Below the pieces are notes generated by a model. It saw only the letters and a list, made by a program, of their open reading frames with translations, made no database searches and had not been told where the DNA came from. A stretch of 64,000 nt of DNA from an uncultured Clostridia bacterium. Its GTDB lineage: Bacteria > Bacillota > Clostridia > UBA1381. Location of the stretch: positions 1 through 64,000 of the forward strand of contig CALXWJ010000037.1 of the NCBI GenBank assembly GCA_944392335.1, in the 5' to 3' direction. Both the position numbers and the translations under genes were made by a program. Of this stretch, positions 7,118 through 57,622 are shown piece by piece (position 1 is the stretch's first letter; each line of letters opens with the position of its first letter).

Positions 7118-7253
7118 TGCGGACAGGATGTCTCCCCGCCGTTATCAGCGGCGGGTTCCGTATTTGTAATCGGTGAGAGTACAATATCCCGCTGATTACA
7201 TCGCAGCTTGCGCTCTTGTTCTCGTTAAATGACAGGACAAGTCGTTATTGAAA
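7118..7253 (+). repeat. Structured mobile element, copy 1
   Basis: One of five copies of an intergenic element that begins TGCG just 3' of TATAAC and ends TTATTGAAA. Visible helices: P2 CCCGCCG with CGGCGGG (loop TTATCAG), P3 TGTAATC with GATTACA extended by wobble pairs, an outer TGCG/CGCA closure, and a separate end hairpin CTTGTTC with GGACAAG. It fills the gap between the FucI-like gene and the GH43 gene and ends a few bases before the GH43 ribosome binding site. Orientation is given by the other copies. Confidence 0.8.
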
Positions 7254-7269
7254 TCAGGAGGTACGAATT

Positions 7270-8187
7270 ATGAAACTGAATATCAAAGAAACAGATAAAG
7301 TACAGCCGGATCCTTTTATATTTGATGACGGAGATGGTTTGTATCTATATGTTACCGGGAATGACGGTGTTGAGGCCTATTCAGCAAAAGACCTGTTAGG
7401 CGAATGGAAATATGAAGGGATAGTTACTAAATTTCCGGGATGCTATGAATATTGGGCGCCGTCTGTTATTAAAATAGGAAATACTTATTATATGTATGTA
7501 TCATGCTCTAATGAAAATATGTTTCAATTTTTGCATGTAGCGTCTTCGGACAACCCGCTTGGACCGTTCACCAATGAAAAATGCTTGTATAACTATTTTT
7601 CAATCGATTCACATATGGTCGAGTCGGGAGGAAATCTTTTTTTGTGGTATGCTAAGGACAATTTAGAGAGTGAGCGGATCGGAACAAGGGTATATCTTGA
7701 CCGGTTTATTGATCCGTATACACCTGAAAATGATCCTAAAGAAGTAATTGTTCCCACGTTTGAAGAAGAAAAATTCACTCCCAACTGCAAAGACGGAAAA
7801 AACTGGTATACAATTGAAGGCCCGTTTTGGTTTATGGAGGGAGAATGGCAATATGTCATGTACAGCGGAGGCTGTTTTATGGATGATACATATCATATCG
7901 GATATGCTTGCGCGAAATCTTCGGAGGAAGATTTGAAAAAGGTAGAATTTGTTAAGAAAACCGATAACGGTAAATTTAATCCTGTTATTATAAAAAATGA
8001 TTTTGAGGAAGGCACCGGACATCACAGCGTGATCAAATACAAGGGGGAATATTACGCTATATATCATGCAAGGGACTATGATAATGAAAATAAAAAGGAA
8101 TATGTTGAAAAGCGGACTGCGAGAATCTGCAGGCTTATTGTGAAGGATGGTATAATAACGGCGCAAAGATATAAAGATTCTATTTAA
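7270..8187 (+). CDS. GH43-like five-bladed beta-propeller glycoside hydrolase
   Basis: A 305-residue single-domain protein without a signal peptide. The pattern QPDPFIF (D14, putative base), SIDSHM (D113, pKa modulator) and IEGPFWF (E183, putative acid), with repeated YYMYVS/YVMYSGG strands, is that of the GH43/GH62/GH32 propellers, closest to GH43. Members remove arabinose or xylose from plant polysaccharide side chains. AGGAGG lies 7 bases upstream of the ATG. It follows the GH36 and isomerase genes in the same direction, but structured element copy 1 separates them, so operon membership is plausible and unproven. Confidence 0.85.
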   Translation: MKLNIKETDKVQPDPFIFDDGDGLYLYVTGNDGVEAYSAKDLLGEWKYEGIVTKFPGCYEYWAPSVIKIGNTYYMYVSCSNENMFQFLHVASSDNPLGPFTNEKCLYNYFSIDSHMVESGGNLFLWYAKDNLESERIGTRVYLDRFIDPYTPENDPKEVIVPTFEEEKFTPNCKDGKNWYTIEGPFWFMEGEWQYVMYSGGCFMDDTYHIGYACAKSSEEDLKKVEFVKKTDNGKFNPVIIKNDFEEGTGHHSVIKYKGEYYAIYHARDYDNENKKEYVEKRTARICRLIVKDGIITAQRYKDSI

Positions 8188-8241
8188 TTGGTTATACTAA
8201 GTACAAAAATCACAATAAATTTATTTTAATTAAAAGGGGTG

Positions 8242-8889
8242 TTGAAAATAAAAGAAATAAATCCTAAACAAACAAAGCGCGCGGAGGCTTTTGAATTGTG
8301 GATGAAAGCACCGATGCCGATGGTAACAATTTTTAAAGCTTTGGATATTTCCGATTTAATTAAAATAAGCAGAAAAAATAAGGTGAAGCTTAATATGCTA
8401 ATGTGTTGGTGCATTGGAAAAGCTGCATCATCGATTGAAGAGTTTTATATGCTCCCGGTAGGTGAAAAATTAGTGCAATATGATAAAATCGCGGTCAATA
8501 CGGTTGTAACAACACAAAATGGCGGTATCAGCACTTGTGATATCCCTTTTTCAGATGATATAAAAATATTTAACCGGGATTATCTAAAACTCACGAAACG
8601 GGTATATGATACCTGTAAGCCTTATGATATCAGTGATGAATATATGGTGATAGGAACATCTGCGCTTATAAATCATGATATTGACGGAGTTGTAAATATT
8701 TACGCGGGGACATATAATAATCCGTTTGTTATTTGGGGCAAATACAAAAAGAAATTATTTAAATCGATCCTTAAGTTGTCATTTCAATTTCATCATACCC
8801 AGATGGACGGAGATCACGCGGGAACATTTTTGGATCGTCTGCAAAAAAAGATCAAACACTTAAAAATAATCGGTTGTGACTGTAAGTAA
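8242..8889 (+). CDS. Chloramphenicol acetyltransferase-like (CatA-type) protein
   Basis: About 216 residues with the CatA trimer-fold signature HHTQMDGDH near residues 184-192, where the second His and the Asp-Gly correspond to the catalytic and structural residues of CAT (HHxxxDG). Other CAT-like blocks include MPMVTIF and LMCWCIGKAASS. The start is ambiguous: GTG at 8239 or TTG at 8242, both just behind AAAAGGGG. Many CatA-like genes in gut Clostridia are chromosomal and not proven resistance genes, so the acceptor is unassigned. It is followed by ~235 AT-rich bases with no gene. Confidence 0.75.
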   Translation: MKIKEINPKQTKRAEAFELWMKAPMPMVTIFKALDISDLIKISRKNKVKLNMLMCWCIGKAASSIEEFYMLPVGEKLVQYDKIAVNTVVTTQNGGISTCDIPFSDDIKIFNRDYLKLTKRVYDTCKPYDISDEYMVIGTSALINHDIDGVVNIYAGTYNNPFVIWGKYKKKLFKSILKLSFQFHHTQMDGDHAGTFLDRLQKKIKHLKIIGCDCK

Positions 8890-9124
8890 AGAAGCGATGA
8901 AAATGCAGAAAATAAAGGGAGAAATTAATGCTTGTTTTGCCGGTGTATTAATAATTTTATCCTTAGTAAATTTTATGATTTACAAATTTGATTATTTATA
9001 CAGACCGAAAAATTATATTATTTTCATATGATTTTAATTTTGAGATTGAAAGTTATTTTTTCTGATTATACATTGTCCAATGGATATATTTTTCGTAAAA
9101 CGAAAGCAGAAAGGAAATATTGGA

Positions 9125-9622
9125 ATGAAAACATTAATTGTTATAGACATGCAGAGGGATTTTATAGACGGAAGTCTTGGAACTAAAGAAGCCGTTGCAA
9201 TTGTAGATAGTGTAAAAAAGAAAATAAAAGAATATGAAGAAAACGGTGACGAAATTATTTTTACACGGGATACTCATCAAACAAACTACCTCGAAACATA
9301 TGAAGGAAAGAAGCTTCCGGTTGAGCATTGTATTGAGGGAACGGACGGATGGCAGATCTTTGACGGACTCATAACAGAGGGAGCAAAAATTATTGATAAA
9401 CCAACATTCGGATATACGGGATGGAATAAAAGATCGTTTGAAGAAATTGAAATTGTGGGTTTGTGTACCGATATTTGCGTGGTGTCCAATGCACTGATAT
9501 TAAGAGCATATTTCCCCGAAACAAAAATAAGTGTACAAAGCAGCTGCTGTGCCGGGGTAACGCCAAAAACACATAATGCGGCTCTTGAGGTAATGAAGAT
9601 GTGCCAAATAGATGTTAAGTAG
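9125..9622 (+). CDS. Isochorismatase/nicotinamidase-family cysteine hydrolase
   Basis: A 165-residue protein with the family triad layout: IDMQRDFIDG (Asp), a Lys in DKPTFGY, and TDICVVS (nucleophilic Cys). FTRDTH has the usual metal or substrate loop position. Family members hydrolyse nicotinamide, isochorismate, N-carbamoyl compounds or similar amides; the size and simple core fit a nicotinamidase-like enzyme, but the substrate is not determined. ATG 9125 is chosen over an upstream in-frame ATG at 9080 because AAAGGA precedes it and MKTLIVIDMQ is the normal family N-terminus. Confidence 0.8.
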   Translation: MKTLIVIDMQRDFIDGSLGTKEAVAIVDSVKKKIKEYEENGDEIIFTRDTHQTNYLETYEGKKLPVEHCIEGTDGWQIFDGLITEGAKIIDKPTFGYTGWNKRSFEEIEIVGLCTDICVVSNALILRAYFPETKISVQSSCCAGVTPKTHNAALEVMKMCQIDVK

Positions 9623-9636
9623 GTGAGGCAATAATT

Positions 9637-10008
9637 ATGTTTTTTATAATGGGAATTACCGATGGCAATAAGGAATTGAAATATGACGGCGGAGGAATGA
9701 ATATCTGTAAAAGCTGTGGGGCTTATACAAGATACATTGTTTATATGACATATATGTGTCTTAGTTTGTTTTTTATTCCGACAATAAAATGGGGAAAAAA
9801 ATATTATGTAAGAACATCTTGCTGCGGCAGTGTATATGAACTTAATGAAGAAAAGGGTAAGATGATAGCCCGCGGGGAAAATGTAAATATAACTGATTCT
9901 GACTTGACGCCTGTGAGCGAGAAAAAAAGACACAAAATCTGTAGAATATGCGGATATGAAACAAATGAGGATTTTGAATATTGCCCAAAATGCGGAGGAA
10001 AATTTTAA
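9637..10008 (+). CDS. Small zinc-ribbon protein
   Basis: A 123-residue protein with two cysteine pairs near the N-terminus (CKSC, CC), a hydrophobic stretch (YMTYMCLSLFFIP) that may dip into the membrane, and a C-terminal double-CxxC zinc ribbon (CRICGYETN, then YCPKCGGKF). Such proteins are common in Clostridia and lack a defined role. It begins 15 bases after the isochorismatase-like gene and ends before a bidirectional terminator, so the two genes are probably co-transcribed. Confidence 0.7.
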   Translation: MFFIMGITDGNKELKYDGGGMNICKSCGAYTRYIVYMTYMCLSLFFIPTIKWGKKYYVRTSCCGSVYELNEEKGKMIARGENVNITDSDLTPVSEKKRHKICRICGYETNEDFEYCPKCGGKF

Positions 10009-10061
10009 TAAAAGGATATTATTGTCAAACCGCGGCAAAGGAAAAATATGCAAATTCCAAT

Positions 10062-10105
10062 AAAAATGACGGGGAAATCATAATGATATTCCCTCGTCAT
10101 TTTTT
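10062..10105. terminator. Bidirectional terminator between convergent genes
   Basis: AAAATGACGGGGAA pairs with TTCCCTCGTCATTTT around an 11-12-base loop, with A-runs on one side and T-runs on the other, so it can work on both strands. It sits between the plus-strand zinc-ribbon gene and the minus-strand recR stop codon (10104-10106). Confidence 0.85.
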
Positions 10106-10697
10106 ACATATTTTGTCTTCCTTCCAATGCTTTTATTAAAGTTATTTCATCAGCATATTCAATATCGCCGCCGATAGGAATACCGTTAGCGATTCTTGTC
10201 ACTTTAATACCCATTGGAGAAATAAGCTTTGAAAGATAAACGGCGGTAGCCGTACCGCTTACTGTAGGATTTGTTGCCATTATGACCTCATTAACATCGG
10301 CAGTCAAACGTATAAGCAGTTCTTTTATCTTTAAATCATCAGGGGAAATTCCGTCCATTGGTGACAGTGCCCCGTGAAGAACATGATATAAACCGTTGAA
10401 TTCTTTTGTTTTTTCTATTGCCGTAACGTCTTTTGGGTTCTCAACAACGCATATAATACTTTTGTCACGCTTGTCCGAAGAACATATGCGACAAGGCGAT
10501 ACATCGGTGAGATTTTGGCATATCGGGCAAAAATGTACCTTTTCCTTTGCCTCTGATATACTCTTAATCATATGCTCAACGTCATTTTTTGACATGTTGT
10601 CAAGAACATAAAAGGCAATCCTTTCCGCGCTTTTTCTGCCGATGCCCGGCATTTGCGCAAAGCTTTCAATAAGTGATTCAATTAATGGAGGAAACAT
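10104..10697 (-). CDS. recR: Recombination mediator protein RecR
   Basis: A 197-residue RecR. The N-terminal helix-hairpin-helix region has PGIGRKSAER. A four-cysteine zinc finger (CPICQNLTD, CRICSS) lies at about residues 57-74. A Toprim domain follows (IICVVENPKDV, then LHGALSPMDGI), and the C-terminus has EYADEITL. RecR loads RecA with RecF/RecO in gap repair. It is the last gene of the dnaX-ybaB-recR cluster, a conserved order in Firmicutes, with 22 bases between ybaB and recR. Confidence 0.97.
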   Translation of the reverse strand: MFPPLIESLIESFAQMPGIGRKSAERIAFYVLDNMSKNDVEHMIKSISEAKEKVHFCPICQNLTDVSPCRICSSDKRDKSIICVVENPKDVTAIEKTKEFNGLYHVLHGALSPMDGISPDDLKIKELLIRLTADVNEVIMATNPTVSGTATAVYLSKLISPMGIKVTRIANGIPIGGDIEYADEITLIKALEGRQNM

Positions 10698-10719
10698 TAA
10701 AACTCATACTCCCGTAATC

Positions 10720-11076
10720 TCAGAATAATCCGGGAATGTTGATCCCGCCGGTAACGGCGCTCATTCCTTCGGTCATCATGTCATCTGCTTGTTTAATTGC
10801 ATCATTTACAGCAACAAGGATCAGATCTTCCAAGGTCTCAACATCCTCCGGATCCACTGCCTCAGGTTTGATCTTAATTGAAAGTATTTCCTTTTTACCG
10901 TTGGCGGTAACATTGATAACACCGCCTCCCGCAGTTGCTTCAACGGTTTTATCTTCCAGCTCCGATTGGATCTTTTCCATTTCTTCCTGCATTTTTTGTG
11001 CTTGTTTTAATACGCTGTTCATGTTTTTGCCTGTGTTTAAGCCGGCGCCGCCATGAAAACCCTTGTATTTTCCCAT
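10720..11076 (-). CDS. YbaB/EbfC-family nucleoid-associated protein
   Basis: A 118-residue protein with the family core MLKQAQKMQ-like helix ([14 protein letters not shown]), a glycine-rich strand ([17 protein letters not shown]) and [12 protein letters not shown]. YbaB proteins are dimeric DNA-binding nucleoid proteins, almost always encoded between dnaX and recR as here. ATG 11076 ([10 protein letters not shown]) is preferred to the upstream ATG 11097 because TGGAG lies 7 bases before it and the family starts with a short Gly/Lys-rich tail. Confidence 0.93.
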
Positions 11077-11174
11077 ATTAAATCTCCATTCTGTCATTGA
11101 TGGCTATGACTTTTATGTTTTTATTTATATTACACTGTCCATCATTCAGTGTTTTGTGATATCCTTGCGGATGA

Positions 11175-12983
11175 TCATTCATTTGTTTGTGTTTCTTCAG
11201 TATCTGAATATTGTTTTTCTATTTCATCGGCGTCAAGAAACTCTTCAGTTATTTCCTCATCAGACAATTCCTGCTGCTCGTATGAAGAAGATCCGTCAGC
11301 TGAGCGGTTGTTATCATCTTGAAATTCCACAATATCAGGATATTCGTTTTTTAATTTATCAAAAGGATCGTTACTGTCAAAAGATGATGGATGATCGGCA
11401 TTTATCTTCGTATCGGAATTTGATTCTTCAATATCCCAGACATCTATAATATAATCTTCCATGTCTTTAGCAAAAACAGGCTTGATCATAAAATCAGTGT
11501 TAGAATAGTGACTGAAACTTTTTTGTATCTGCTGCAAATATTTAACTGCAAGGTTTTTTAATGTGATTTCCTTTTCATCAAATAACAGTATTATGCCGTC
11601 GCCGTCAATAGTTATTTTCCTGTTGATCAAAAAATTTAAAAAAGGATACTCGCGGCAAATCGCTCCGGCAATCTTATCCCAATTTCTTGCCGCCGCAACG
11701 ATCGGTGAACCGGAGGTCAAAGCTGATTTATCAATGGGAGTAAAAAGTCTTGCCGGGACTTCAGCTTTTTTTTTACTTTTTTTTTCTTCTTTTACTTCTT
11801 CTTTTTTATCCGATGTGTTTTTTACGACAATACCGTTTTCAGCCTTTTTTTCTACCGAAGCAAGCCTGTCCAAAAGTGCTTCCTGAGATGAATCAAGTTC
11901 GGGCTGAGTGAGTTTTACCAATGACAGCTCATATATTATACGGGGATTTTTTACCCATTTTGCATCGGCTTTTGCCTTTGTTAATATTGTTACCGCGTTT
12001 GAAAGCTTTTCATACGTTATATTTTCAGCCTGTGTTTTTATTTTTAAAAGAATATTATCGGAATATTCAAGAAGATTTTCCGGTTTATTTGAAATTTTAC
12101 ATACAAGAAGATCTCTGAAATGTTTAATGAGTGAATCACAAAATACATTGAGATCTTTTCCTTCTTTTGAGATGTTGTCGATCAATGTCATCACCGAAGC
12201 AGAGTCTGATGATATTACCGAGTTCGTAATGTCAAACAGCATATCATTTGGGACCATACCCAAAATATCGGTAATGGAAGCACGGTCGATTTTATTGCCT
12301 AACGAGGAAACACATCTTTCCAATATACTCAAGCCGTCTCTCATTGAACCGTCTGCAAGCTGTGCCAAAACGGAATAAGCGTCATCCGTAATTTCAATAC
12401 CGTCTGCTGCTGCAATTTCTTTCATTCTTACAATTATATCGGAAGGCGTTATCCGTTTAAAATCAAAACGCTGACATCGTGAGAGAATTGTTTCGGGTAT
12501 TTTGTGGACTTCTGTTGTCGCCAAAATAAAAATAACGTGAGCAGGAGGCTCTTCAAGAGTTTTTAACAGTGCGTTAAAAGCCCCCGTTGAAAGCATATGG
12601 ACCTCATCTATGATATAAACACGGTATTTTGTCTGAGTTGCCACGTAATTTACATCGTCTCTTAATTCTCTTATATTGTCTACACCGTTATTCGAAGCCG
12701 CGTCTATTTCGGTTACATCCATGATACTGCCGTCTTGTATTCCGCGGCATATTTCGCATTCGTTGCATGGAGACCCGTTTTGAGGATTAAGGCAATTTAC
12801 CGCTTTTGCAAAAACCTTTGCGGCAGTGGTTTTACCTGTCCCTCTCGTTCCGCAAAAAAGATATGCATGGGAAATCCTATCAGACATTATTTGTTTTTTA
12901 AGCGTGTTTGTAATATGACTTTGTCCGATTATATCTTCAAATATCTGAGGACGCCATTTTCGATAAATTGCCTGATACGCCAT
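11175..12983 (-). CDS. dnaX: DNA polymerase III subunits gamma/tau
   Basis: A 602-residue clamp-loader ATPase. YRKWRPQIFEDIIGQ begins the AAA+ domain; the Walker A is GTRGTGKTT, the zinc site has CLNPQNG plus CNECEIC, Walker B is IDEVHML, and sensor 1 is FILATTEVHKIP. A Lys/Glu-rich linker near residues 385-405 leads to a tau-type C-terminal region with an acidic tail (EEITEEFLDADEIEK). It loads the sliding clamp and couples polymerases at the fork. It heads the dnaX-ybaB-recR transcript, with AGGAGG upstream of its ATG. Confidence 0.97.
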   Translation of the reverse strand: MAYQAIYRKWRPQIFEDIIGQSHITNTLKKQIMSDRISHAYLFCGTRGTGKTTAAKVFAKAVNCLNPQNGSPCNECEICRGIQDGSIMDVTEIDAASNNGVDNIRELRDDVNYVATQTKYRVYIIDEVHMLSTGAFNALLKTLEEPPAHVIFILATTEVHKIPETILSRCQRFDFKRITPSDIIVRMKEIAAADGIEITDDAYSVLAQLADGSMRDGLSILERCVSSLGNKIDRASITDILGMVPNDMLFDITNSVISSDSASVMTLIDNISKEGKDLNVFCDSLIKHFRDLLVCKISNKPENLLEYSDNILLKIKTQAENITYEKLSNAVTILTKAKADAKWVKNPRIIYELSLVKLTQPELDSSQEALLDRLASVEKKAENGIVVKNTSDKKEEVKEEKKSKKKAEVPARLFTPIDKSALTSGSPIVAAARNWDKIAGAICREYPFLNFLINRKITIDGDGIILLFDEKEITLKNLAVKYLQQIQKSFSHYSNTDFMIKPVFAKDMEDYIIDVWDIEESNSDTKINADHPSSFDSNDPFDKLKNEYPDIVEFQDDNNRSADGSSSYEQQELSDEEITEEFLDADEIEKQYSDTEETQTNE

Positions 12984-13033
12984 TTCTCATACCTCCTTTT
13001 TACATAAATGCTCAGAATACGGATGCTATTATG

Positions 13034-13056
13034 AAAAAACCCCGTTAAAAACAGGG
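13034..13056 (-). terminator. Terminator downstream of the SRP RNA
   Basis: On the minus strand CCCTGTT pairs with AACGGGG around a short loop and is followed by TTTTTT. It lies between the SRP RNA 3' end and the dnaX start, so it separates the two transcription units. Confidence 0.75.
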
Positions 13057-13065
13057 AAATAATCA

Positions 13066-13181
13066 AAAAAAGGCTCCGACCGAGTTATCCATAACACATC
13101 AAAATATCCGCTTATTGCTGCTTGGTTCCCCATCTGACAAGGTTCACGGCTTTCAATCGCACGGGCTCGGCCTTCATCGCC
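13066..13181 (-). ncRNA. ffs: Signal recognition particle RNA, small bacterial type
   Basis: On the minus strand the apical domain reads GTGAACCTTGTCAG then ATGGGGAACCAAGCAGCAA, with the GGAA-type tetraloop and internal loops of the Ffh-binding hairpin. The ends pair (AAGGCCGAG near 13175 with CTCGGTC/GCCTT near 13072), followed by a T-run. SRP RNA with Ffh targets membrane proteins co-translationally. Its length of about 115 nt and lack of an Alu domain make it the small bacterial form. Position just upstream of dnaX is typical of Firmicutes. Confidence 0.93.
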
Positions 13182-13208
13182 CAAAAGTCTTTTATTGACT
13201 GCCTATAT

Positions 13209-13237
13209 ATTATAATACAAAAAAGATAAAACTGCAA
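13209..13237 (-). promoter_or_regulatory. SigmaA promoter of the SRP RNA
   Basis: Minus-strand TTGCAG (13237-13232) and TATAAT (13214-13209) are separated by exactly 17 bases. The -10 lies about 28 bases upstream of the SRP RNA 5' end as drawn, which suggests that the mature end is processed or the RNA starts slightly earlier. Confidence 0.8.
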
Positions 13238-13538
13238 GACTTTTTTTAAAATTTTTTTGTTTACATACGAATTTGTATTATTTTTGTAATAAATCATCTG
13301 CTTAAATATCATTTTTTTTGATATAATCCGACCAAACTTGATTTTAAATTGCATATTATTTGATTCGGGTCGAAGCCTGATGATGAAAATAAGAAATATC
13401 TGTCGTATTATGCGATTTTTTTCTCTTGTATTTACCGTGATTTTGTTTTATAATATGACTGCAGAAAGTTAAAATTCAATAATTAATATATTGGATTGTT
13501 ATCCGATGATTAATATATACATGAAAGGACAGTTTTTA

Positions 13539-13895: not shown

Positions 13896-13908
13896 CCAAA
13901 GCGTGCTG

Positions 13909-13944
13909 CCGCAAGGAATGTATGTATTTCTTTGCGGTTATTTT
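13909..13944 (+). terminator. Probable terminator after the DUF6514-like gene
   Basis: CCGCAAGGAA pairs with TTTCTTTGCGG around a short loop, followed by an imperfect T-rich tail (TTATTTTA). It begins 14 bases after the stop codon at 13895. Confidence 0.65.
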
Positions 13945-23922: not shown

Positions 23923-24287
23923 GTTGTGACACTTGACAAACGATGAAGCGGGAGGTTGCGAACATTAGGTTCGGTTTTTCCGTGGAGAATGTCCGATTCA
24001 TGAAACCGGGCGGCAGGTCACGCTGTATTTAATATGCGTATACAAAAGATACCCGATGTTGGGATTTTTATGCCCTGAATTGGGGTATAGTTATGTGCTT
24101 TTAACAGCGTAAAAGACTTCCCGGAGTGCGTTATTGCAATTCGGGTTTTTATTTACCGGGCGATGGAAACACCCGGAAGTGTGTAAACATAACGAGCTGT
24201 CGTGCGAGAAACACAATGATTATGGTTGTCTGAAAATACCCAATGATTTCAGATCACCGGAGAAAAAATTATATAGGAGGGAAAAAC
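23923..24287 (+). promoter_or_regulatory. S10 operon leader with an attenuator
   Basis: The ~365-base untranslated leader is GC-richer and more structured than the flanks. A hairpin at 24120-24145 (CCCGGAGTGC with GCAATTCGGG, including wobble pairs) runs straight into TTTTT (24146-24150), an intrinsic terminator inside the leader. A second hairpin at 24156-24176 (CCGGG/CCCGG) follows. S10 operons of Firmicutes and enterics are known to be controlled through leader structures bound by L4; here the L4 contact is inferred, the terminator is seen. Confidence 0.65.
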
Positions 24288-28981: not shown

Positions 28982-28983
28982 GA

Positions 28984-39994: not shown

Positions 39995-40027
39995 TTTATT
40001 TAAATTAACAAGAAATTAATTTATAAC

Positions 40028-40219
40028 TGCGGACAAGATGTTCCCTCCTATGTAGGCGGGTTCATATCGGAAAGGGGCTGTTGCAAATGAGCATCAGAAA
40101 ATGATCATTTGCAACAGCCCTATATTTGTAATCGGTGAGAGTACAATCTTTCACTGATTGCATCGCAGCACAACTAGCTTTTTTGTCCTCGCTCAAGATG
40201 GGATAAGCCTTTATTGAAC
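40028..40219 (+). repeat. Structured mobile element, copy 2, with a nested hairpin insert
   Basis: Same element as at 7118: begins TGCGGACAAGATG after TTTATAAC and ends TTATTGAAC. P2 here is CCCTCCTA with TAGGCGGG, a different sequence that still pairs. P3 is TGTAATCGGTGAGAG with CTTTCACTGATTGCA, held by three wobble pairs. Between P2 and P3 an extra ~50-base palindrome (40070-40123) is inserted. Confidence 0.8.
40075..40120. repeat. Palindromic insert inside element copy 2
   Basis: A perfect 16-bp inverted repeat, GGGCTGTTGCAAATGA (40075-40090) with TCATTTGCAACAGCCC (40105-40120), around a 14-base loop. Copies 1, 3, 4 and 5 lack it. ATAT-like bases flank it on both sides, a possible short target duplication. 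The end sequence resembles terminal repeats of small MITE-like elements. Confidence 0.7.
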
Positions 40220-46598: not shown

Positions 46599-46732
46599 TA
46601 CGCAATACGGATGTAAACTGAGCAGACGGAGGAATTTGACCTTTCATCTGGATGCCCACAAATTTGCGCTATCGCGCATATTAAAGCAAGCATAAAATGA
46701 TACTGTCGGGTTAATTAATGATATAACCTCCT

Positions 46733-47400
46733 TAGAGTGGACACACGAAATAACAAAAATATTTCAATCTATTCTAAGGGGGTTTTTCTATGCAAATTAA
46801 AAACATATTGATTATGAACAAAAATTGCAAGCGGTGACAGAATATTTACAGGGACAAACAAGCTAATCAAAAGTTGCAGCCAAATATGGTGTTAAACAGT
46901 CCGGCTTTCAAACTTGGTTAAGGAAATACAACTCAGAGGGAGCGGATGGGCTAAAGAAATCAAATAAATGTAAGCAGTATTCTGTTGAACTTAAATATGC
47001 TGCAGTAATTGAATATCTTTCGGGATGTATGAGTCAACAAGAGATATGTAAAAAATATAACTGCGCACATGTTGTCCCCGGCCGTAATCGGCGGCGGGTC
47101 CCATATCTGTAATCATTGTGAGAATATTATCTTCCGCCGATTACAGCGCGGCGTCGTAGGGGCGATTCACGAATCGCCCGTTTCGCTCTTGTCCTCGCCC
47201 AAGACGGGACAAGCCCTTATTGAAAATTTCAAGTAAAACTCAACTACAACGCTGGATTTTATGGTATAATGGTCATAAGGAATTGAAATCTACCGGTTCA
47301 GGAGGAAACAGACTTATGACTAAAGGACATAAAGTAACATTTGATGAGAAAGTTGAGATCATGTAGTATTGTATAGCACATGGCAGAGATTATTATGCCG
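46733..47400 (+). pseudogene. IS3-family (IS150-like) transposase orfA relic, split by element copy 3
   Basis: A TAGAGTGGACAC end (46733-46744) of IS3-family type is followed by a decayed orfA. Fragments of two helix-turn-helix units are readable: QKLQAVTEYLQGQ, SKVAAKYGVKQSGFQTWLRKYNSEGADGL, and YSVELKYAAVIEYLSG with SQQEICKKYN. Reading then resumes after the structured element as SSKTQLQRWILWYNGHKELK and VTFDEKVEI. Lesions include a frameshift near 46815, TAA at 46864, TAG at 47364, the inserted element at 47062-47225, and loss of everything after about 47400. No orfB or right end is seen. 46599-46732 and 47401-47499 hold nothing recognised. Confidence 0.8.
47062..47225 (+). repeat. Structured mobile element, copy 3, inside a transposase relic
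   Basis: Begins TGCGCACATG after AATATAAC and ends TTATTGAAA. P2 is CGGCCG/CGGCGG-like, P3 is closed by TGTAATC and GATTACA, and the end hairpin is a perfect CTTGTCC with GGACAAG. Between them is a perfect 9-bp palindrome (GGGCGATTC, AC, GAATCGCCC; 47160-47179), shared with copy 4. It interrupts the orfA frame exactly between a Tyr-Asn codon pair and Ile-Ser-Ser. Confidence 0.82.
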
Positions 47401-48735: not shown

Positions 48736-48758
48736 TTGATTTAATATGAGGTGAGTAT

Positions 48759-49745
48759 ATGGCAAATATAAAACAAGTGGCAAATATGGCGGGCGTTTCG
48801 ACGGCAACGGTTTCCAAATATTTGAACGGGATAAGGGTCAAGGATTTTAACAAGGAAGCAATTGAGAATGCGATAACAAAGTTGGAATATAAACGTAATC
48901 CTACCGCACGCAGTTTAAGGATACATAAAAGCATGACAATAGGAGTCCTTATACCCGAATTGGATAATCTGTTTTCCACATCGATCATATCGATCATAGA
49001 AAATATCATAATAAAAAAAGGCTACAGTACAATTATCTGCGACTATAAATCGGATAGGGAGTTGGAGATAAAAAAGCTTAACTTTTTATTGGACAAATTG
49101 GTTGACGGTATTATTATAATGCCCATATATCTTACAAAGAAGGATATTGAAAATATAGATATCCCCATAGTTTTCATAGACAGAAGGATCAACGATGTCG
49201 ACGCGAATTGTGTAATTATCGATAATGAAAAGGCCGCGTTTGACGCAACAAAATATCTGATAAATAACGGACATAAGGATATAGGCGTCATTCTTGGACC
49301 GAGAAATGTATATACATCAAAGGAAAGATTTAAAGGCTATGAAAAGGCCATGAAAGAACATGATATCGAAATAAAGGAGCAATATGTTATACATGGCGAT
49401 TATGATATAAAAACGGGACATGATGCTGCTATCAGTATGATGAAAATGAACAAAATACCCACTGCCATCTTTGCAACCAATTATGAGATAACCTTGGGTG
49501 TTATCATAGCTCTTAATGAGATGAATATAAACGTACCGGAGGAGGTATCGCTGGTCGGATTTGACAATCTTGAAATGGCAAGGGTCGTAAGACCAAAGGT
49601 CACAATTGTAACCCAGCCAATCGAGGAGATCGGCAAACGTATTGCACAGACGATATTGAGAGCAATAGAAACACAAAACAGAGAAAAGCAGTGTATAAAA
49701 TTGGATACAGAGCTTGTGATCCAGGATTCGGTAAAGAAAATATAA
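48759..49745 (+). CDS. LacI-family transcriptional regulator
   Basis: A 328-residue regulator. The N-terminal helix-turn-helix and hinge read IKQVANMAGVSTATVSKYLNG (~3-24), followed by KRNPTARSLR. The rest is a periplasmic-binding-like sensor, with TIGVLIPELDNLFS, IPIVFIDRR, GHKDIGVILGP, PTAIFATNYE and EEVSLVGFDNLEMARV. Such proteins release DNA on binding a sugar or sugar phosphate. The gene lies directly upstream of the aldolase operon, whose promoter carries two near-perfect LacI-type operators, so it is the likely repressor. GAGGTG lies upstream of the ATG. The TAA stop falls within the TATAAC just before element copy 4. Confidence 0.93.
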   Translation: MANIKQVANMAGVSTATVSKYLNGIRVKDFNKEAIENAITKLEYKRNPTARSLRIHKSMTIGVLIPELDNLFSTSIISIIENIIIKKGYSTIICDYKSDRELEIKKLNFLLDKLVDGIIIMPIYLTKKDIENIDIPIVFIDRRINDVDANCVIIDNEKAAFDATKYLINNGHKDIGVILGPRNVYTSKERFKGYEKAMKEHDIEIKEQYVIHGDYDIKTGHDAAISMMKMNKIPTAIFATNYEITLGVIIALNEMNINVPEEVSLVGFDNLEMARVVRPKVTIVTQPIEEIGKRIAQTILRAIETQNREKQCIKLDTELVIQDSVKKI

Positions 49746-49746
49746 C

Positions 49747-49908
49747 CTACGTGCAGATGTCCCCCGCCGTTTTCGGCGGCGGGTTTCATATTGTAATCAG
49801 TGAGAGTTCAATCTCTCACTGATTACAGCGCAGAACCGCAGGGGCGATTCACGAATCGCCTGTTTCGCTCTTGTCCTCGCTGAATAACGGTACAAGTTTT
49901 TATTGAAA
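49747..49908 (+). repeat. Structured mobile element, copy 4
   Basis: Inserted directly after TATAAC that contains the regulator stop codon, and ends TTATTGAAA. This copy has the best P3: TGTAATCAGTGAGAG pairs perfectly (15 bp) with CTCTCACTGATTACA. P2 is CCCGCCG with CGGCGGG. It shares the GGGCGATTC palindrome (49842-49860) with copy 3, with one mismatch. The end hairpin is CTTGTCC/GGTACAAG with a bulge. It sits 11 bases upstream of the first operator of the aldolase promoter. Confidence 0.82.
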
Positions 49909-49918
49909 TTTTTGCATA

Positions 49919-50004: not shown

Positions 50005-50024
50005 TTTAATCGGGAGGTCTTGAT

Positions 50025-50888: not shown

Positions 50889-50911
50889 TTGTTTTGCAGG
50901 GAGGTCGTAAG

Positions 50912-52387: not shown

Positions 52388-53406
52388 AGGCAGGCATACT
52401 GTATAAAAATGAGGACATAAGATATGAAGAAACAGATAAGCCCGTTATATCCGATAACGAAGTTTTGGTGAAGGTGAGGATGACGGGAATATGCGGCAGT
52501 GATGTGCCGAGAGTATTATATAACGGCGCCCATTATTATCCTATCATACTCGGACATGAATTTTCGGGAGAAATAGCGCAGATAGGAGCCAAAGTCGAAG
52601 GCTTTGAAATAGGGGACCGCGTTTCGGGTGCGCCGCTTATCCCTTGCATGAAATGCGAAGACTGCCAAAACGGAAATTTTTCATTGTGCAAAAATTATAC
52701 TTTTATCGGATCGAGAATACAGGGCAGCTTTGCGGAATATGTAAAAATGCCGGCAGTAAACGCGATCAAGTTTGACAAATCGATATCTTTTGAGCAGGGC
52801 GCTTTTTTTGAACCGGCAACGGTAGCGCTTCATGGTATCAAATGCGCCGAATATACGGGCGGAAAGGACGTCGCGGTTCTCGGAGGAGGAACGATCGGGC
52901 TGTTTACCATGCAATGGGCAAAAATTTTCGGCGCGAAATCAGTTACGGTTTTTGATATATCGGACAGCAGACTGGAATTGGCAAAAAAACTCGGAGCCGA
53001 TCATACGGTAAACACATCAAATGAGAAGACTGTGCAGAGCAAATATGGTTTTGTTTTTGAAACGGCAGGTCAGCCGCAGACGACCAAGCTTGCCTTTGAG
53101 CTTGCCAGGAACAAAGCAAGCGTCTGTTATATAGGAACGCCGCATGATAATGTGACATTTACACCGAGGGAGTGGGAAAACGTAAACAGGAAGGAATTCA
53201 AGCTGACAGGATCATGGATGAGTTATTCCGCACCGTTTCCGGGTGATGAATGGACGCTGACTGCTCATTATTTTAAAACTGGAAGCCTTAAATTTGACGA
53301 GAGCCTTATTTTCAGAAAGTATCCCATGAAGGATATAAAGGAAGCATTTATGCTGTATAAGGATCCTAAGTCTGTGGGCGGAAAAATTATGTTGTATAAT
53401 GATTAA
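52384..53406 (+). CDS. Zinc-dependent medium-chain dehydrogenase (polyol / galactitol-1-phosphate dehydrogenase-like)
   Basis: A 340-residue MDR enzyme. The catalytic zinc site has GICGSDVP and GHEFSGE; the structural zinc site has CMKCEDCQNGNFSLC; the coenzyme motif is VLGGGTIGLF followed by FDISDSRLELAKKLGAD, indicating NAD. The stretch GSRIQGSFAEYVKMP and FEPATVALHG is of the kind seen in GatD-type and sorbitol dehydrogenases, which oxidise a polyol (or its phosphate) to a ketose. The start overlaps the kinase stop, so expression is coupled. Confidence 0.88.
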   Translation: MKAGILYKNEDIRYEETDKPVISDNEVLVKVRMTGICGSDVPRVLYNGAHYYPIILGHEFSGEIAQIGAKVEGFEIGDRVSGAPLIPCMKCEDCQNGNFSLCKNYTFIGSRIQGSFAEYVKMPAVNAIKFDKSISFEQGAFFEPATVALHGIKCAEYTGGKDVAVLGGGTIGLFTMQWAKIFGAKSVTVFDISDSRLELAKKLGADHTVNTSNEKTVQSKYGFVFETAGQPQTTKLAFELARNKASVCYIGTPHDNVTFTPREWENVNRKEFKLTGSWMSYSAPFPGDEWTLTAHYFKTGSLKFDESLIFRKYPMKDIKEAFMLYKDPKSVGGKIMLYND

Positions 53407-53428
53407 TGTAAAAAAGAGGGGTATTAAT

Positions 53429-54436
53429 ATGGAAGCTATAGAACAGAGTAAAATTTTCAGAAGAAAGCTATATAACGGATATGAAATTCCCTGTATCGGA
53501 ATGGGGACTTTCGGAAGCGATCATTTTTCAAATGATGATATCGCATCGGCTGTTGAGGGGGCTGCAAGGCTGGGATACAGATTATTCGACTGCGCCTCTG
53601 TATACGGTAATGAGGACCTGATAGGCATTTCGCTAAAAAGGATCATGGACAGCGGAATAAAAAGGGAAGAGCTGTTTATTCAGTCAAAGGTATGGAATGA
53701 TAAGCATGACGACGTAATAAATTCATGCAAGAAATCTCTTAAGGATTTAGGGCTTGATTATCTTGACACATATTTCGTTCACTGGCCCTTCCCCAATTAC
53801 CATGCACCGGGCTGCAGTGTTGACAGCCGTGCTGAGGACGCGACTCCCTATATACATGAAAAATTCATGAACACATGGGCACAGATGGAAGAATTGGTAG
53901 ATATGGGACTGGTAAGATCGATAGGAACGTCAAATGTAACGATACCAAAATTAAAATTGATCTTAAGGGATTGCAGGATAAAGCCCGCGATCAATGAGAT
54001 GGAGCTTCATCCATCCTTCCAGCAGCCTGAGCTGTTTGATTTTTGCTTGGAAAACGGTATTCAGCCTATCGGTTTTTGCCCGTTGGGTTCGCCTACAAGA
54101 CCGGACAGAGATAAAAGCCCGGATGATGTTGCTGATATGAAGATGCCGGAAATCGTAGAGCTTGCAAAAAAACATAATGTACATCCGGCGATCATTTGTC
54201 TGAAATGGGCTGTGCAAAGAGGTCAGATACCTATTCCGTTTTCGATCCATGAAAGCGAATATTACAGTAATCTTCTTTCTGTTACACAAGACCCCTTAAC
54301 AGATGATGAAATGAAAATCATGAAATCGGTAGATAAAAACTGCAGATTTATAAAGGGACATGTATTTTTGTGGAAGGGCGCAAAAGACTGGCGCGATCTG
54401 TGGGATTTGGACGGAACCATTACAAAGGTCAAATAA
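53429..54436 (+). CDS. Aldo/keto reductase
   Basis: A 335-residue AKR barrel. The catalytic tetrad is seen as Asp and Tyr in FDCASVYGNE, Lys in FIQSKVWN, and His in YFVHWPFPN. SIGTSNVTIPKL and NEMELHPSFQQPEL are family blocks, and the C-terminal NADPH loop is PIPFSIHESEYYSNL. It would reduce an aldose to an alditol, or the reverse. ATG 53429 is preferred, with GAGGGG upstream, over the ORF start at 53399 that overlaps the dehydrogenase end. It precedes the secreted protein gene by 32 bases without a terminator. Confidence 0.9.
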   Translation: MEAIEQSKIFRRKLYNGYEIPCIGMGTFGSDHFSNDDIASAVEGAARLGYRLFDCASVYGNEDLIGISLKRIMDSGIKREELFIQSKVWNDKHDDVINSCKKSLKDLGLDYLDTYFVHWPFPNYHAPGCSVDSRAEDATPYIHEKFMNTWAQMEELVDMGLVRSIGTSNVTIPKLKLILRDCRIKPAINEMELHPSFQQPELFDFCLENGIQPIGFCPLGSPTRPDRDKSPDDVADMKMPEIVELAKKHNVHPAIICLKWAVQRGQIPIPFSIHESEYYSNLLSVTQDPLTDDEMKIMKSVDKNCRFIKGHVFLWKGAKDWRDLWDLDGTITKVK

Positions 54437-54468
54437 TAAAAAAATTGAAATTCGGAAAGAGGCGATGG

Positions 54469-57456
54469 ATGTTGATTAAAATTATAACAAAATGTACTGC
54501 GCTGACAGCGGCAGCGGCTATGTTGTCCGTACTTATTCCGCAGGGTATATCAGCAGCGGCCGATATTGTCTATACACAATATGATATGACATCTATATAT
54601 AATACGGGCAATATATATACAAGCAGACAAGGCGCCCAGGGAAATGCCGGATACGCGGGAGCATTTGATTACGACTCGTTTATAGGAGATTCCTATAATA
54701 CCTGGCAGAATGAATGGGAATCCGGCATGACGGACAATGTTTTAACGATAGGCGATATACCTTTTGCCATGAGAGTTATAGATCACGGCGACTGGATGGT
54801 GAACACACCGTGTGTATGGTGGAATACGGGATATAATACCCCGTATACAAATTTTGATATTGAGGATAGTTATTATACATCACTTGAAATACTTGCAAAT
54901 TCAGATAGGCCCACACAACCGCAGCTTACTGTAAGGCTCAATTATGCGGACGGGTCAGTGGAGGCATATAACTATACTCTTGCATACTTTTTCAACGGCT
55001 TCGGGGATGCCGAAGACGGAATAGAGTCCCCTGACTGCACGATGGACATGAACGGATATGTGGGACATTTCAGCGTGAGCGTTGACCCTTTGAAGATTCT
55101 TGAAAGCTTTGACATTGTGAATGACAGATTTAATCTCACGTCAGGTTCGGACGGGCAGCCGGTAAAAAATGAAAATGGACAATATACCGCAAACGAAGAA
55201 GCAGTGTCAAACAGAGGAAGATATTCACACACCGCGGCAGTTTATGCCATGACATTGGTGCAGGATGAAGAACAGATAGAACAAGCTCAAAATGAAAAGA
55301 TCGAAAAGGAGATCGAAGAGATTGAAAACGCCATCGACAGTCTTGGGGAAATATCGGAATTGACCTATGACAGAAAAGATGAGGTAGACAGGATCACAGA
55401 GCTTTTGGAAACAGCAGAACAGGACGGAATAGATGCAGAGACACAGATTTCAAATTATTCAAAGTATCTTGAAGCGGTCGAGAGGATGAATCAGCTGTAT
55501 GAGCAGCAGGTCTACACATCAATTATAGACGCCATCGACGGTCTCGGAAATATTGCCGATCTGACATACGATCAAAAGGATGACGTAGATAACATAACAA
55601 AGCTGATACAAGAGGCAAATGCCGCGGGATATACAGTCACTGAGGAAACAGTTCCAAATTATTCCAATTATCTTGAAGCGGTGGAAAAAATCAATGAATT
55701 GTATGCTGAGACGGTATATAAGGAAATAGAAGACGCGATCGCCGCGTTGGGAGATGTGGATGAGATCACATATGAGGACAAAGAAAAGGTAGATCACATA
55801 ACAGCGCTTATAGAAAACGCGCAGGCGCAAGGCTTGAATATATCTGAAGAGACCGTTAAAAATTATCCGGACTATGTTCAGGCAAAAAACACGATAAAAG
55901 GTCTTACATCAGTATCGATAACCGTTGATATGTCGCAAATGTATAATCAGGGAACGATCTATACAAGTGTAAATCAATTGGGAAGCGCCGGATATGCAGG
56001 ATCGATCTATTATCCTTATTTTATAAGCAGTGAATATCATGACTGGAAAAAACCATGGAGTGAAGGTATGCAGACAAATACCATGACTGTAGACGGAATA
56101 GATTTTCTGTTTAAAGTAGTTGATTTCGGAGATTATGAAGATTCCACAAGCTGTGTATTCTGGAATACCAATGCAGACAGTGCATACACAAATGTCGACA
56201 TAGAAGACAATTATTATACATATGTTAACATTATGGCAAATAACGACAGGCCGATAAATAACTCCAAGTTAGCCGTAAGGCTTAATTATGAGGACGGAAG
56301 CGAACAGGTGTATGAGTATGGTCAGGCATATATTTTCAACGGTTTCGGCGAAAGCGGCAGTGGTATAACGGTGAATATGATAAATAATACCGGTTCAACA
56401 GCGGAAACAGGATATATAACCCGCTACAGGATACCTGTTGATCAGGATAAAAGGCTTGTAAGCTATGATATTTTAAACGAAAGCTATGAATTTGTAAAGG
56501 ATGATTCCGGGAATTATATCCTTGACGATAACGGGAAAGTCCAGACGAAAGCATCCCCATATTCGGGAAGAGATAATTATACTTATGCCACTGCGGTATA
56601 TTCTATGACATTGGAAATGCTTTACAGGGATTATGAAGTAATGATCGAAAAGGTCATAAATGAGCTGGAAAACGAGCTGACCTTGAGAATGGAAGTTGTT
56701 GATAACAGACCGGTGAGCATTACCGATACCGGAAAGCAGACATACTGGGAGCTTGATAATTATATCCAAATGCTCGGAGATTACGATAATGTCGGCGAGC
56801 TTGAAAACTACAGCATGTTAAAAGAGGTAATGCCTGTTTATGATGGCTCGGGAGTTGAGGTAAAATATGACAATGTTATCATAAGCATGGATTTTGATAA
56901 GGAAATGAAAGATCCCGAAGGTCTTGTAACTGTGACAAGAAACGGAGAAAACGTCCAGAACTTTATAACAAAAACCGAGGGAAACAGTGTTTTTGTATCG
57001 ATCCAAAATGATTTTGACACCGATGCGAAATATGATTTGAGGATTTCTTCAAATGCGGCTTCGATCTACGGGGATACATTCACTCTCGAAAGCGACGCGG
57101 TATTTTCATTTACCATCCCTCAGACAAATATAATAACCGACTTTAAGATAGTCGGCAGTGACGGAAATGAGATCACCGATATGAGTACATACACAGGCAG
57201 CGAAATAACCGTAACGGGAGAGCTTAAAAATGTTTCGGTATCGGAAGGACAGCAATATTTAATTTTGGTTTGTCTTTATAACAACGCGGGACAGCTTATC
57301 GATATGGATAGGATATACGGTGATTTGCCAATGGGCGCGGCCGCTGATATAAACAAAACGCTTACAACTGATGGCAATAGTGGATGCAGCTTGATTGCAT
57401 ATTCACTTGATGACATACTTACAATGAGAACGATCTATAAAACCATAATAAAATAA
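54469..57456 (+). CDS. Secreted modular protein P1: two aromatic modules, FIVAR-like helical repeats, Ig-like and C-terminal domains
   Basis: A 995-residue secreted protein. Signal peptide 1-31 (LTAAAAMLSVLIPQGISAAA). Residues ~32-265 and ~482-719 are two copies of a module with (Y)NxGxIYTS, NAGYAGAFDY, VIDHGDW, CVWWN, DIEDSYYTSLEILANSDRP and AVYAMTL. Between them are three ~68-residue FIVAR-like helical units, each with LTYDxKDxVDxIT and NYSxYLEAVExxNxLY. Later come an SbsA/Ig-like domain (~787-884: ISMDFDKEM, YDLRISSNA, YGDTFTLES) and the shared C-terminal domain (~884-995, LILVCLYNNAGQLIDM). No anchor motif. It is co-directional with, and only 32 bases after, the reductase gene, so it probably belongs to the sugar operon. 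ATG 54469 follows AAAGAGG; the module has no known function. Confidence 0.82.
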   Translation: MLIKIITKCTALTAAAAMLSVLIPQGISAAADIVYTQYDMTSIYNTGNIYTSRQGAQGNAGYAGAFDYDSFIGDSYNTWQNEWESGMTDNVLTIGDIPFAMRVIDHGDWMVNTPCVWWNTGYNTPYTNFDIEDSYYTSLEILANSDRPTQPQLTVRLNYADGSVEAYNYTLAYFFNGFGDAEDGIESPDCTMDMNGYVGHFSVSVDPLKILESFDIVNDRFNLTSGSDGQPVKNENGQYTANEEAVSNRGRYSHTAAVYAMTLVQDEEQIEQAQNEKIEKEIEEIENAIDSLGEISELTYDRKDEVDRITELLETAEQDGIDAETQISNYSKYLEAVERMNQLYEQQVYTSIIDAIDGLGNIADLTYDQKDDVDNITKLIQEANAAGYTVTEETVPNYSNYLEAVEKINELYAETVYKEIEDAIAALGDVDEITYEDKEKVDHITALIENAQAQGLNISEETVKNYPDYVQAKNTIKGLTSVSITVDMSQMYNQGTIYTSVNQLGSAGYAGSIYYPYFISSEYHDWKKPWSEGMQTNTMTVDGIDFLFKVVDFGDYEDSTSCVFWNTNADSAYTNVDIEDNYYTYVNIMANNDRPINNSKLAVRLNYEDGSEQVYEYGQAYIFNGFGESGSGITVNMINNTGSTAETGYITRYRIPVDQDKRLVSYDILNESYEFVKDDSGNYILDDNGKVQTKASPYSGRDNYTYATAVYSMTLEMLYRDYEVMIEKVINELENELTLRMEVVDNRPVSITDTGKQTYWELDNYIQMLGDYDNVGELENYSMLKEVMPVYDGSGVEVKYDNVIISMDFDKEMKDPEGLVTVTRNGENVQNFITKTEGNSVFVSIQNDFDTDAKYDLRISSNAASIYGDTFTLESDAVFSFTIPQTNIITDFKIVGSDGNEITDMSTYTGSEITVTGELKNVSVSEGQQYLILVCLYNNAGQLIDMDRIYGDLPMGAAADINKTLTTDGNSGCSLIAYSLDDILTMRTIYKTIIK

Positions 57457-57483
57457 TTTGTACCTTATGCGCTGCAATATAAC

Positions 57484-57622
57484 TGCGCTAAAGCTGTCCG
57501 CCGCTTTACGGCGGCGGGCTCCATAGCTGTAATCAGTGAAAGAGTAAAATCTCTCTCTGATTGCATCTATGCCATAGAGCGCTCTTGTCTTTGCTGAATA
57601 ACGGGGCAGGCCCTTATTGTAC
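57484..57622 (+). repeat. Structured mobile element, copy 5
   Basis: Begins TGCGCTAAAGCTGTCC after AATATAAC and ends TTATTGTAC. P2 is CCGCCG with CGGCGG, P3 TGTAATCAG with CTGATTGCA (wobble), and the last hairpin is CTTGTCT.../GGGCAGG, weaker than in other copies. It lacks the GGGCGATTC palindrome. It occupies the P1-P2 intergenic region, starting 27 bases after the P1 stop. Confidence 0.78.

What the first reader, a model, noticed from the sequence alone, without database searches (positions are those of the whole stretch)
7118..57622. Five-copy structured non-coding element with covarying stems, always 3' of TATAAC
Copies at 7118-7253, 40028-40219, 47062-47225, 49747-49908 and 57484-57622 share 5' TGCG, P2 (GC-rich), P3 (TGTAATC...GATTACA), an end hairpin CTTGTCC/GGACAAG and the 3' end TTATTGAAA. 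Stems are kept by wobble or compensatory change: P2 is CCCGCCG/CGGCGGG in one copy and CCCTCCTA/TAGGCGGG in another, and P3 in copy 2 keeps pairing through three G-T pairs. All five lie just after (T/A)ATAAC or TATAAC, all in plus orientation, with no open frame inside. A fixed 5' target, sub-terminal hairpins and no target duplication resemble non-autonomous IS200/IS605-type elements; a functional RNA (omega-RNA-like or regulatory) is the alternative. I know of no named family matching it.
Basis: seen in the sequence. Interest (0 to 1): 0.88.

Follow-up and report, generated by a model that had tools for sequence, protein, structure and literature searches.

The report
Small jumping element with folded stems
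The five repeats belong to a large family of short, gene-less jumping DNA elements, present in at least 150 copies in this uncultured bacterium and in scattered other Clostridia, that land just after the letters ATAA without leaving the usual duplication, and whose moving enzyme is still unknown.

Summary
The five copies exist, all on the plus strand, with sharp ends. They are a small sample: the host genome holds at least 150 full-length copies, on both strands. The element occurs in 22 of 95 genomes of the order (own included), all in one family, and in 15 genomes of ten other families among 391 of the class. Four filled/empty-site pairs and five head-to-tail joints show that it runs from C to TTATTGAA (or GATTTAAA), inserts exactly 3' of (T)ATAA, duplicates nothing and loses nothing. 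It encodes no protein. Stem covariation is not above chance within this genome, but is strong in a short subfamily from relatives. Copies lie mostly between genes, tend to share a strand with neighbouring copies and tend to follow GC skew. This fits IS200/IS605-type single-strand transposition. However, Y1 (or Y2) genes do not co-occur, none of the Y1 loci examined carries these ends, and no autonomous copy was found. Best reading: a new, unusually structured kind of non-autonomous, ssDNA-type mobile element, moved in trans by an unidentified enzyme. No Rfam family matches.

The parts
7117..7252 (+). Copy 1 of the element (C...TTATTGAA), 17 bases before the start codon of a GH43-like gene (7270-8187)
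40027..40218 (+). Copy 2 of the element, with a 47-base inverted repeat (40074-40120) between P2 and P3
47061..47224 (+). Copy 3 of the element, with a GTAG-REP hairpin inside P4; sits in a broken IS3-like transposase gene; empty site known
49746..49907 (+). Copy 4 of the element (5' variant CCTACGTGC), with a REP-like hairpin inside P4; its target TATAA supplies the stop codon of the LacI-like gene 48759-49745
57483..57621 (+). Copy 5 of the element (ends TTATTGTA)
7112..7116 (+). Target TATAA left of copy 1
40022..40026 (+). Target TATAA left of copy 2
47056..47060 (+). Target TATAA left of copy 3 (present in the empty paralogue)
49741..49745 (+). Target TATAA left of copy 4
57478..57482 (+). 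Target TATAA left of copy 5
46718..47393 (+). IS3-like sequence interrupted by copy 3; uninterrupted paralogue at G000:C19:19408-19920 (in L168), whose 446-aa frame carries HTH_Tnp_1, HTH_21 and rve

Best explanation
The repeats are a family of 110-200 bp non-autonomous mobile elements. Shown: one strand carries the target (T)ATAA; the element (C...TTATTGAA, or C...GATTTAAA in a longer subfamily) is inserted exactly 3' of it, with no duplication and no loss; copies nest in each other and join head to tail; ends and architecture are shared across several families of Clostridia. Inferred: it moves as folded single-stranded DNA by an IS200/IS605-like peel-and-paste reaction. The subterminal hairpins mark the ends, the strand is cut after ATAA on the left and after TTGAA/TTAAA on the right, and the excised strand is joined 3' of ATAA in exposed lagging-strand template, by a transposase supplied in trans that I could not identify. 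A possible guide is ATGT near the 5' foot of P2, which could pair with ATAA plus the first element base by the IS608/ISDra2 pairing scheme.
For: Empty sites: copy 3 against its IS3-like paralogue; a long-type copy in G009 against another locus of G009, 55 and 97 bases on the two sides; two own-type copies nested in the P3 loop of long-type elements (L027, L280). Head-to-tail joints in L220, L229, L235, L236 and L289. ATAA at -4..-1 in 103 of 119 copies and C at +1 in 106 of 119. Flanks not conserved outside the ends (anchored on the 47 of 62 copies with exact TATAAC and the 49 with TTATTGA). Copies cluster by strand: 76 of 102 neighbouring pairs on the same strand, 0 of 20,000 shuffles as high; still 44 of 63 for neighbours at least 5 kb apart. 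Flank skew read on the element strand is positive in 41 of 58 own and 38 of 56 relatives' copies, against 365 of 663 (55%) intergenic TATAA sites. In a second set of 20 stretches, 33 of 46 copies agree with the sign of the GC skew. More G-T than A-C in stems of own copies, 76 against 16. ATGT lies at +8..+16 in 50 of 59 and 54 of 60 copies. The IS608/ISDra2 scheme and the lagging-strand preference are from passages of PMC5934647 and PMC5371812.
Against: Y1 genes do not go with the element; none of the 41 Y1 loci carries the ends; no autonomous copy found. A right-end guide matching TTGAA by the IS608 scheme was not found (by eye). Of nine copies read from the class-wide search, five lack ATGT near the left end and only five have exact ATAA before the element (by eye). 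In 16 of 35 own copies the tetranucleotide at the hairpin foot is TTGT. GC-skew agreement in the second set (72%) is no higher than that of genes (71%). Four copies on contig C97, and all copies sampled on C67, C65, C18, C55 and C63, run against local skew, though skew on C65 and C63 is close to zero. The G-T excess is absent in the short subfamily: 60 against 34 with one nearly constant G-T pair, 29 against 34 without it (subtraction by hand).
Confidence: 0.6

Rival explanations
1. It is a mobile element moved without duplication by an enzyme that is not a Y1/Y2 HUH transposase, possibly guided by an RNA copy of the element (the stem that in some subfamilies closes around P2-P4 and the conserved 3' hairpin would then be RNA features).
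For: Copies in genomes without a Y1 match, including the single-contig genomes G237 and G240 and the 98%-complete G028 with 11 copies. Multi-stem architecture kept from family to class level (class level by eye). A G-T pair in P6 in 31 of 33 copies.
Against: No candidate enzyme; no transcription data; within-genome covariation not above chance. A missing Y1 can also mean loss of the mover from genomes with relic copies; G237 and G240 show only 1 and 2 matches.
Confidence: 0.2
2. It is a functional RNA gene or cis-regulatory RNA that happens to be repeated.
For: Strong covariation in the short subfamily; strand-biased wobble pairs in own copies; excess of copies downstream of a co-oriented gene, 34 of 47 against 283 of 655 (43%) for intergenic TATAA sites.
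Against: At least 150 copies in one genome, both strands; all gene contexts; exact empty sites; no Rfam match; no conserved promoter-like sequence upstream of TATAA in the flank counts.
Confidence: 0.08
3. It is moved by the co-resident REP-associated Y1 proteins (RAYT) as a large relative of REP/REPIN repeats.
For: Two Y1_Tnp genes in the genome; a GTAG-REP is found inside copies 3 and 4.
Against: The 176-aa RAYT is flanked by GTAG-REPs, not by this element. The second (281 aa) has a degenerate HUH motif, read by eye. Y1 matches of any kind occur in 6 of 19 family genomes with copies. The ends differ from a GTAG tag plus hairpin.
Confidence: 0.07
4. It is an IS91/Helitron-like rolling-circle derivative.
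For: Subterminal 3' hairpin and head-to-tail joints.
Against: Y2_Tnp (PF04986) matches in 1 of 20 genomes tested (16 with copies, 4 without), a short stretch in G002; the fixed target is at the 5' end.
Confidence: 0.03

Closest known systems
Non-autonomous IS200/IS605 elements (palindrome-associated transposable elements, PATEs)
   Same: Ends-only, no protein, subterminal hairpins, insertion 3' of a short fixed target, no duplication (PMC7290912 passages).
   Different: No TnpA relative with these ends; up to five stems, in some subfamilies with one closing around the inner stems; very high copy number without a co-resident Y1 partner of its own.
REP / REPIN repeats with RAYT (TnpA_REP)
   Same: Short folded repeats at high copy number, thought to be moved by a Y1 enzyme in trans (PMC3116915, PMC8266576: start of abstracts in search listings).
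   Different: Not 20-40 bp GTAG/CGTC-tagged palindromes (PMC3733652, start of abstract in a listing); 110-200 bp, asymmetric ends, ATAA target. A GTAG-REP with its RAYT exists separately in this genome.
bcr1-type repeats of the Bacillus cereus group
   Same: Interspersed mobile repeats of 100-400 bp, bcr1 at 11-130 copies per genome, mobility linked to a TTTAT motif (PMC6542083 passages).
   Different: Sequence identity was not tested (bcr1 sequence not fetched); TTTAT repeats are described there as a possible site-specific recombination mechanism, whereas here only the 5' side has the target.
IS608 / ISDra2 (IS200/IS605 family)
   Same: Insertion precisely 3' of a fixed tetra/pentanucleotide kept in the left flank; cleavage sites on both ends; lagging-strand preference (PMC5934647 and PMC5371812 passages).
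   Different: Target TTAC/TTGAT there, ATAA here; right-end guide not recognisable here.

Membership tests
IS200/IS605 (non-autonomous derivative) | Insertion 3' of a fixed short target with no duplication or loss | tested here: met
   Four empty sites and five tandem joints; ATAA in 103 of 119 copies, but exact ATAA in only five of nine class-level copies read by eye
IS200/IS605 (non-autonomous derivative) | Subterminal hairpin at both ends | tested here: met
   P2 at the left and P6 at the right, folds and pair counts
IS200/IS605 (non-autonomous derivative) | A Y1 TnpA whose own element has the same ends | tested here: not met
   41 Y1 loci: no convincing R2 match (best E 0.017, a weak match in L307), no right end with CC(C/T)TTATTGAA; GTTGAATGACGG with up to 2 mismatches in four loci, none with that end. 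Some loci are cut short by contig ends
IS200/IS605 (non-autonomous derivative) | Y1 gene present where the element is active | tested here: inconclusive
   6 of 19 family genomes and 8 of 15 class genomes with copies have a Y1 match at E 0.001; most are incomplete assemblies, copies may be relics
IS200/IS605 (non-autonomous derivative) | Guide tetranucleotides next to the hairpins pair with the cleavage sites | tested here: inconclusive
   Left: ATGT near the left end in 104 of 119 family copies, absent in five of nine class-level copies; right: not found by eye
IS200/IS605 (non-autonomous derivative) | Orientation follows replication (lagging-strand template) | tested here: inconclusive
   Strong strand clustering, skew agreement above the TATAA null but not above genes in the second set; clear exceptions
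REP/REPIN | GTAG or CGTC tag followed by a 20-40 bp palindrome, linked to a RAYT | tested here: not met
   No such tag at the ends (by eye); the RAYT locus carries a different repeat
IS91 / rolling-circle | Y2 transposase in the same genomes | tested here: not met
   1 of 20 genomes, a 40-position stretch of the family in G002
Any Rfam 15 RNA family | Match at or above gathering score | tested here: not met
   Window; seven further loci searched with E up to 1 gave only one match, below its gathering score and outside the copy
DDE-type MITE | Terminal inverted repeats and target duplication | tested here: not met
   Empty sites without duplication; no inverted match of the two ends seen in the alignments (by eye)

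The most novel reading that the evidence does not exclude
A new superfamily of mobile elements scattered across Clostridia and at least one phage that inserts at ATAA without duplication, uses no known HUH transposase, and relies on its own conserved fold (as ssDNA or as a guide RNA) to be recognised and targeted by an enzyme not yet recognised as a transposase.
Probability: 0.2. Interest if true: 0.85.

Novelty: new variant of a known kind. Interest (0 to 1): 0.55.

Why it matters
It accounts for at least 150 mostly intergenic repeats of this genome and gives exact ends, target and empty sites for a family missing from Rfam. The near-identical copies in genomes G009 and G022 suggest recent movement, so the mover may still be present there. 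If the mover is not a Y1 enzyme, it would be a new duplication-free, target-specific transposition route. If it is, the element is a compact, highly folded substrate for testing how ssDNA guides choose targets.

Tried and rejected
Rfam at gathering and at permissive thresholds: nothing useful. RNAalifold on the own copies gave a poor structure with a covariation term of only -0.51, so I imposed the stems by hand; P4 is poorly aligned. IS200-type TnpA loci of the family have their own, different ends (by eye). A first viral-contig pattern gave five hits that the model does not support and a second none; a third gave one contig, with two copies by model R2. Plasmid and phage collections: no match for the short-type consensus. 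None of 80 rplB-bearing loci of related Clostridia holds a copy by model R2 at E 0.01; they cover only the ribosomal region. G002 as a source of orthologous empty sites failed: 1.5 kb of 20 kb aligned, plus a 141-base match elsewhere. Insertion into stop codons was considered: 1 of 53 own and 10 of 52 relatives' TAA end a long frame, against 6 and 9 for the two other frames together, so not a rule. Search for a left and a right end separated by a gene: one pair 5.3 kb apart in L280, whose left end is the host of a nested copy; of 20 right ends fetched for lack of a left-end match, 17 had a left end close by and three did not (L244, L254, L259, by eye). Integron attC and IS110 bridge-RNA readings were weighed from recalled knowledge and set aside because the empty sites keep no copied core. 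The spanning match L009/L114 was dropped as a self-match, and L312 there is only approximate. The L288 copy was sliced wrongly and not used. The 119 copies left out hits lacking a 5' end or enough flank. The 11 comparison genomes without copies were picked by me from those listed without a match, so that contrast is not a random sample. One passage speaks against orientation as a sure sign: PMC7290912 reports no apparent lagging-strand preference for its IS605 copies.

Full report
What is there. The five copies are real and end sharply. All five lie on the plus strand of the window, and a profile search with three consensus elements finds no sixth copy. They are a small sample. A consensus BLAST of the host genome (3.64 Mb, 99 contigs) returns 40 near-full-length copies among 287 first-look candidates, of which only 40 were scored. 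A covariance model from 35 copies returns 150 full-length matches, the scoring limit, the weakest at E 5e-20. Strands are 72 + and 78 -. Forty stretches totalling 721 kb, most of them chosen because they hold copies, contain 123 hits. The genome belongs to an uncultured Clostridia lineage. The nearest fetched named record is an uncultured Firmicutes MAG with 97.4% DNA identity over 10.6 kb; further ones include Candidatus Ornithomonoglobus, 88% in RplB protein.

Ends and target. Three kinds of evidence fix the ends. First, copy 3 interrupts an IS3-like transposase gene whose uninterrupted paralogue lies on contig C19. The empty site reads AAAATATAA|AATTTC and the filled one TATAA[C...TTATTGAA]AATTTC. 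Second, three more pairs give the same kind of exact junction: a long-type copy in G009 against another G009 locus (91.5% over 153 bases), and two own-type copies nested in the P3 loop of long-type elements (L027, L280). A fifth candidate (L312) is only approximate. Third, head-to-tail pairs join as TTGAA|C, TTTAAA|C or, in L289, TTGAA|T: L229, L235 and L236, L220, L289. ATAA stands directly before the element in 103 of 119 copies, preceded mostly by T, and the first element base is C in 106 of 119. Bases outside the ends are not conserved. There is no target duplication and no loss. Of nine copies read from the class-wide search, five have exact ATAA; the others have near variants such as ACAA or ATAG (by eye).

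Architecture. The own type (135 bases in the consensus, plus inserts) has P2, P3, a variable P4 and a 3' hairpin. The short type of relatives (113 bases) has P1 around P2, then P3, then a terminal hairpin P6 of the form AATGAC-GGGGC...GCCCC-TTATT. The long type (171 bases in the consensus) ends GATTTAAA. GTTGAATGAC...CTTATTGAA is among the most constant stretches in own and short types. In the own type (predicted fold), in a phage copy (by eye) and in the long type (by eye; not the predicted fold) a stem can close around the inner hairpins. Mosaics of long-type 5' ends with short-type 3' ends occur. Covariation is not above shuffles among 35 own copies but is strong among 33 short-type copies: 11 pairs with double changes against 4.8, 0 of 500 shuffles (the tool warns that related sequences can exceed shuffles, but its slid controls are also far lower). 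Copies in other families change whole stems and keep pairing (by eye). G-T exceeds A-C in own stems, 76 to 16, or 41 to 16 without P4 and one subfamily pair. In the short type there is no such excess, 60 to 34, or 29 to 34 without one nearly constant pair (subtraction by hand).

Spread. 19 of 101 genomes (own included) and 22 of 95 genomes of the order (own included) have it at the thresholds used. All are in the host's family; 0 of 25 genomes of the other families of the order have it. With the short-type model R2, 18 of 391 genomes of the class match at E 1e-6 (own included), 15 of them in ten other families (several single matches near 50 bits were not read as sequence). I read nine of the ten fetched loci: eight are from outside the family. 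A viral contig holds two copies. G009 and G022 carry many near-identical copies, which suggests recent movement. The pattern TATAAC-gap-AGATGTCCCC gave 0 matches when read backwards as control in all 19 genomes.

Context and orientation. Of 59 own copies, 3 are overlapped by a frame of 90 aa or more. Of 47 with both neighbours, 21 lie in tandem genes of the same direction, 8 in tandem genes of the opposite direction, 13 between convergent and 5 between divergent genes (mechanical frames). Neighbouring copies share a strand in 76 of 102 adjacent pairs, 0 of 20,000 shuffles as high, and in 44 of 63 pairs at least 5 kb apart. Flank GC skew read on the element strand is positive in 41 of 58 own copies and 38 of 56 from relatives; the null of 663 intergenic TATAA sites is 55%. 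I then fetched 20 further stretches: 33 of 46 copies agree with the sign of the local skew, which is no more than genes do (71%). Contig C97 is a clear exception, with four minus copies on a contig whose eight stretches all have plus skew. The orientation evidence is therefore supportive, not decisive. The first 20 stretches were picked after seeing the strand pattern.

Mechanism. The exact, duplication-free insertion 3' of a fixed short target, cleavage after AA on both sides, subterminal hairpins and small size match IS200/IS605 transposition as described in passages of PMC5934647, PMC7290912 and PMC5371812. By the IS608/ISDra2 pairing scheme, a left guide A-T-G-T would pair with A(-4), T(-3), A(-1) and C(+1). 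ATGT lies at +8..+16 in 50 of 59 own and 54 of 60 relatives' copies. But in 16 of 35 own copies the tetranucleotide at the hairpin foot is TTGT (there ATGT mostly sits three bases upstream, by eye), ATGT is missing in five of nine class-level copies, and I found no matching right guide. I treat the guide as a lead.

What is missing. The mover. Y1_Tnp matches occur in 6 of 19 family genomes with copies and 8 of 11 picked genomes without, and in 8 of 15 class genomes with copies. The single-contig genomes G237 and G240 have one and two model matches and no Y1. None of 41 Y1 loci bears the element's right end, and the best R2 match there is a weak one in L307 (E 0.017). The two own Y1 genes are a RAYT with its own GTAG-REPs and a 281-aa protein with a degenerate HUH motif. 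Y2 has no match in 19 of 20 genomes. No copy with a gene between its ends was seen in 1.44 Mb of fetched DNA, overlapping loci included, or behind 20 right ends.

Verdict. A real, large family of non-autonomous mobile elements without an Rfam model, most likely of the ssDNA peel-and-paste kind, mover unknown. Four literature searches listed no description of it (listings only, open-access papers only; ISfinder and subscription journals were not searched).

Noticed in passing
L112 (around G000:C49:36349-36660), 1447-2340, minus strand: A 176-aa RAYT-like Y1 gene with three GTAGGGGCGATTCACGAATCGCCC-type repeats upstream and a REP-like hairpin inside its own frame; the same REP core is in window copies 3 (47159-47178) and 4 (49841-49860).
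   Followed up: partly
40074-40120: A 47-base inverted repeat (GGGGCTGTTGCAAATGA...TCATTTGCAACAGCCC) inside copy 2, possibly with a short ATAT duplication; a similar repeat stands upstream of the TnpA gene of L196.
   Followed up: no
L111 (around G000:C66:51511-51795) and L202 (G002): Y1_Tnp proteins in frames of 283 and 272 aa in two genomes of the genus; the G000 copy has K-V-H in place of the HUH motif, perhaps a domesticated protein.
   Followed up: no
L308:832-967 and 9194-9331: A viral contig (IMGVR_UViG_3300037400_003070) carries two copies of the element, both on the same strand; the one read has a stem that can close around P2-P4.
   Followed up: partly
L289 (G240, single-contig genome) 1501-1702: Two copies in head-to-tail tandem, suggesting that the right end can itself serve as a target.
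   Followed up: partly
23935-24016: S10-Clostridia ribosomal protein leader (Rfam RF03136) in the ribosomal protein gene region.
   Followed up: no
G000:C97:80132-147173: Four copies all run against the plus GC skew of the contig; a recent inversion, misassembly or an exception to the orientation rule.
   Followed up: partly
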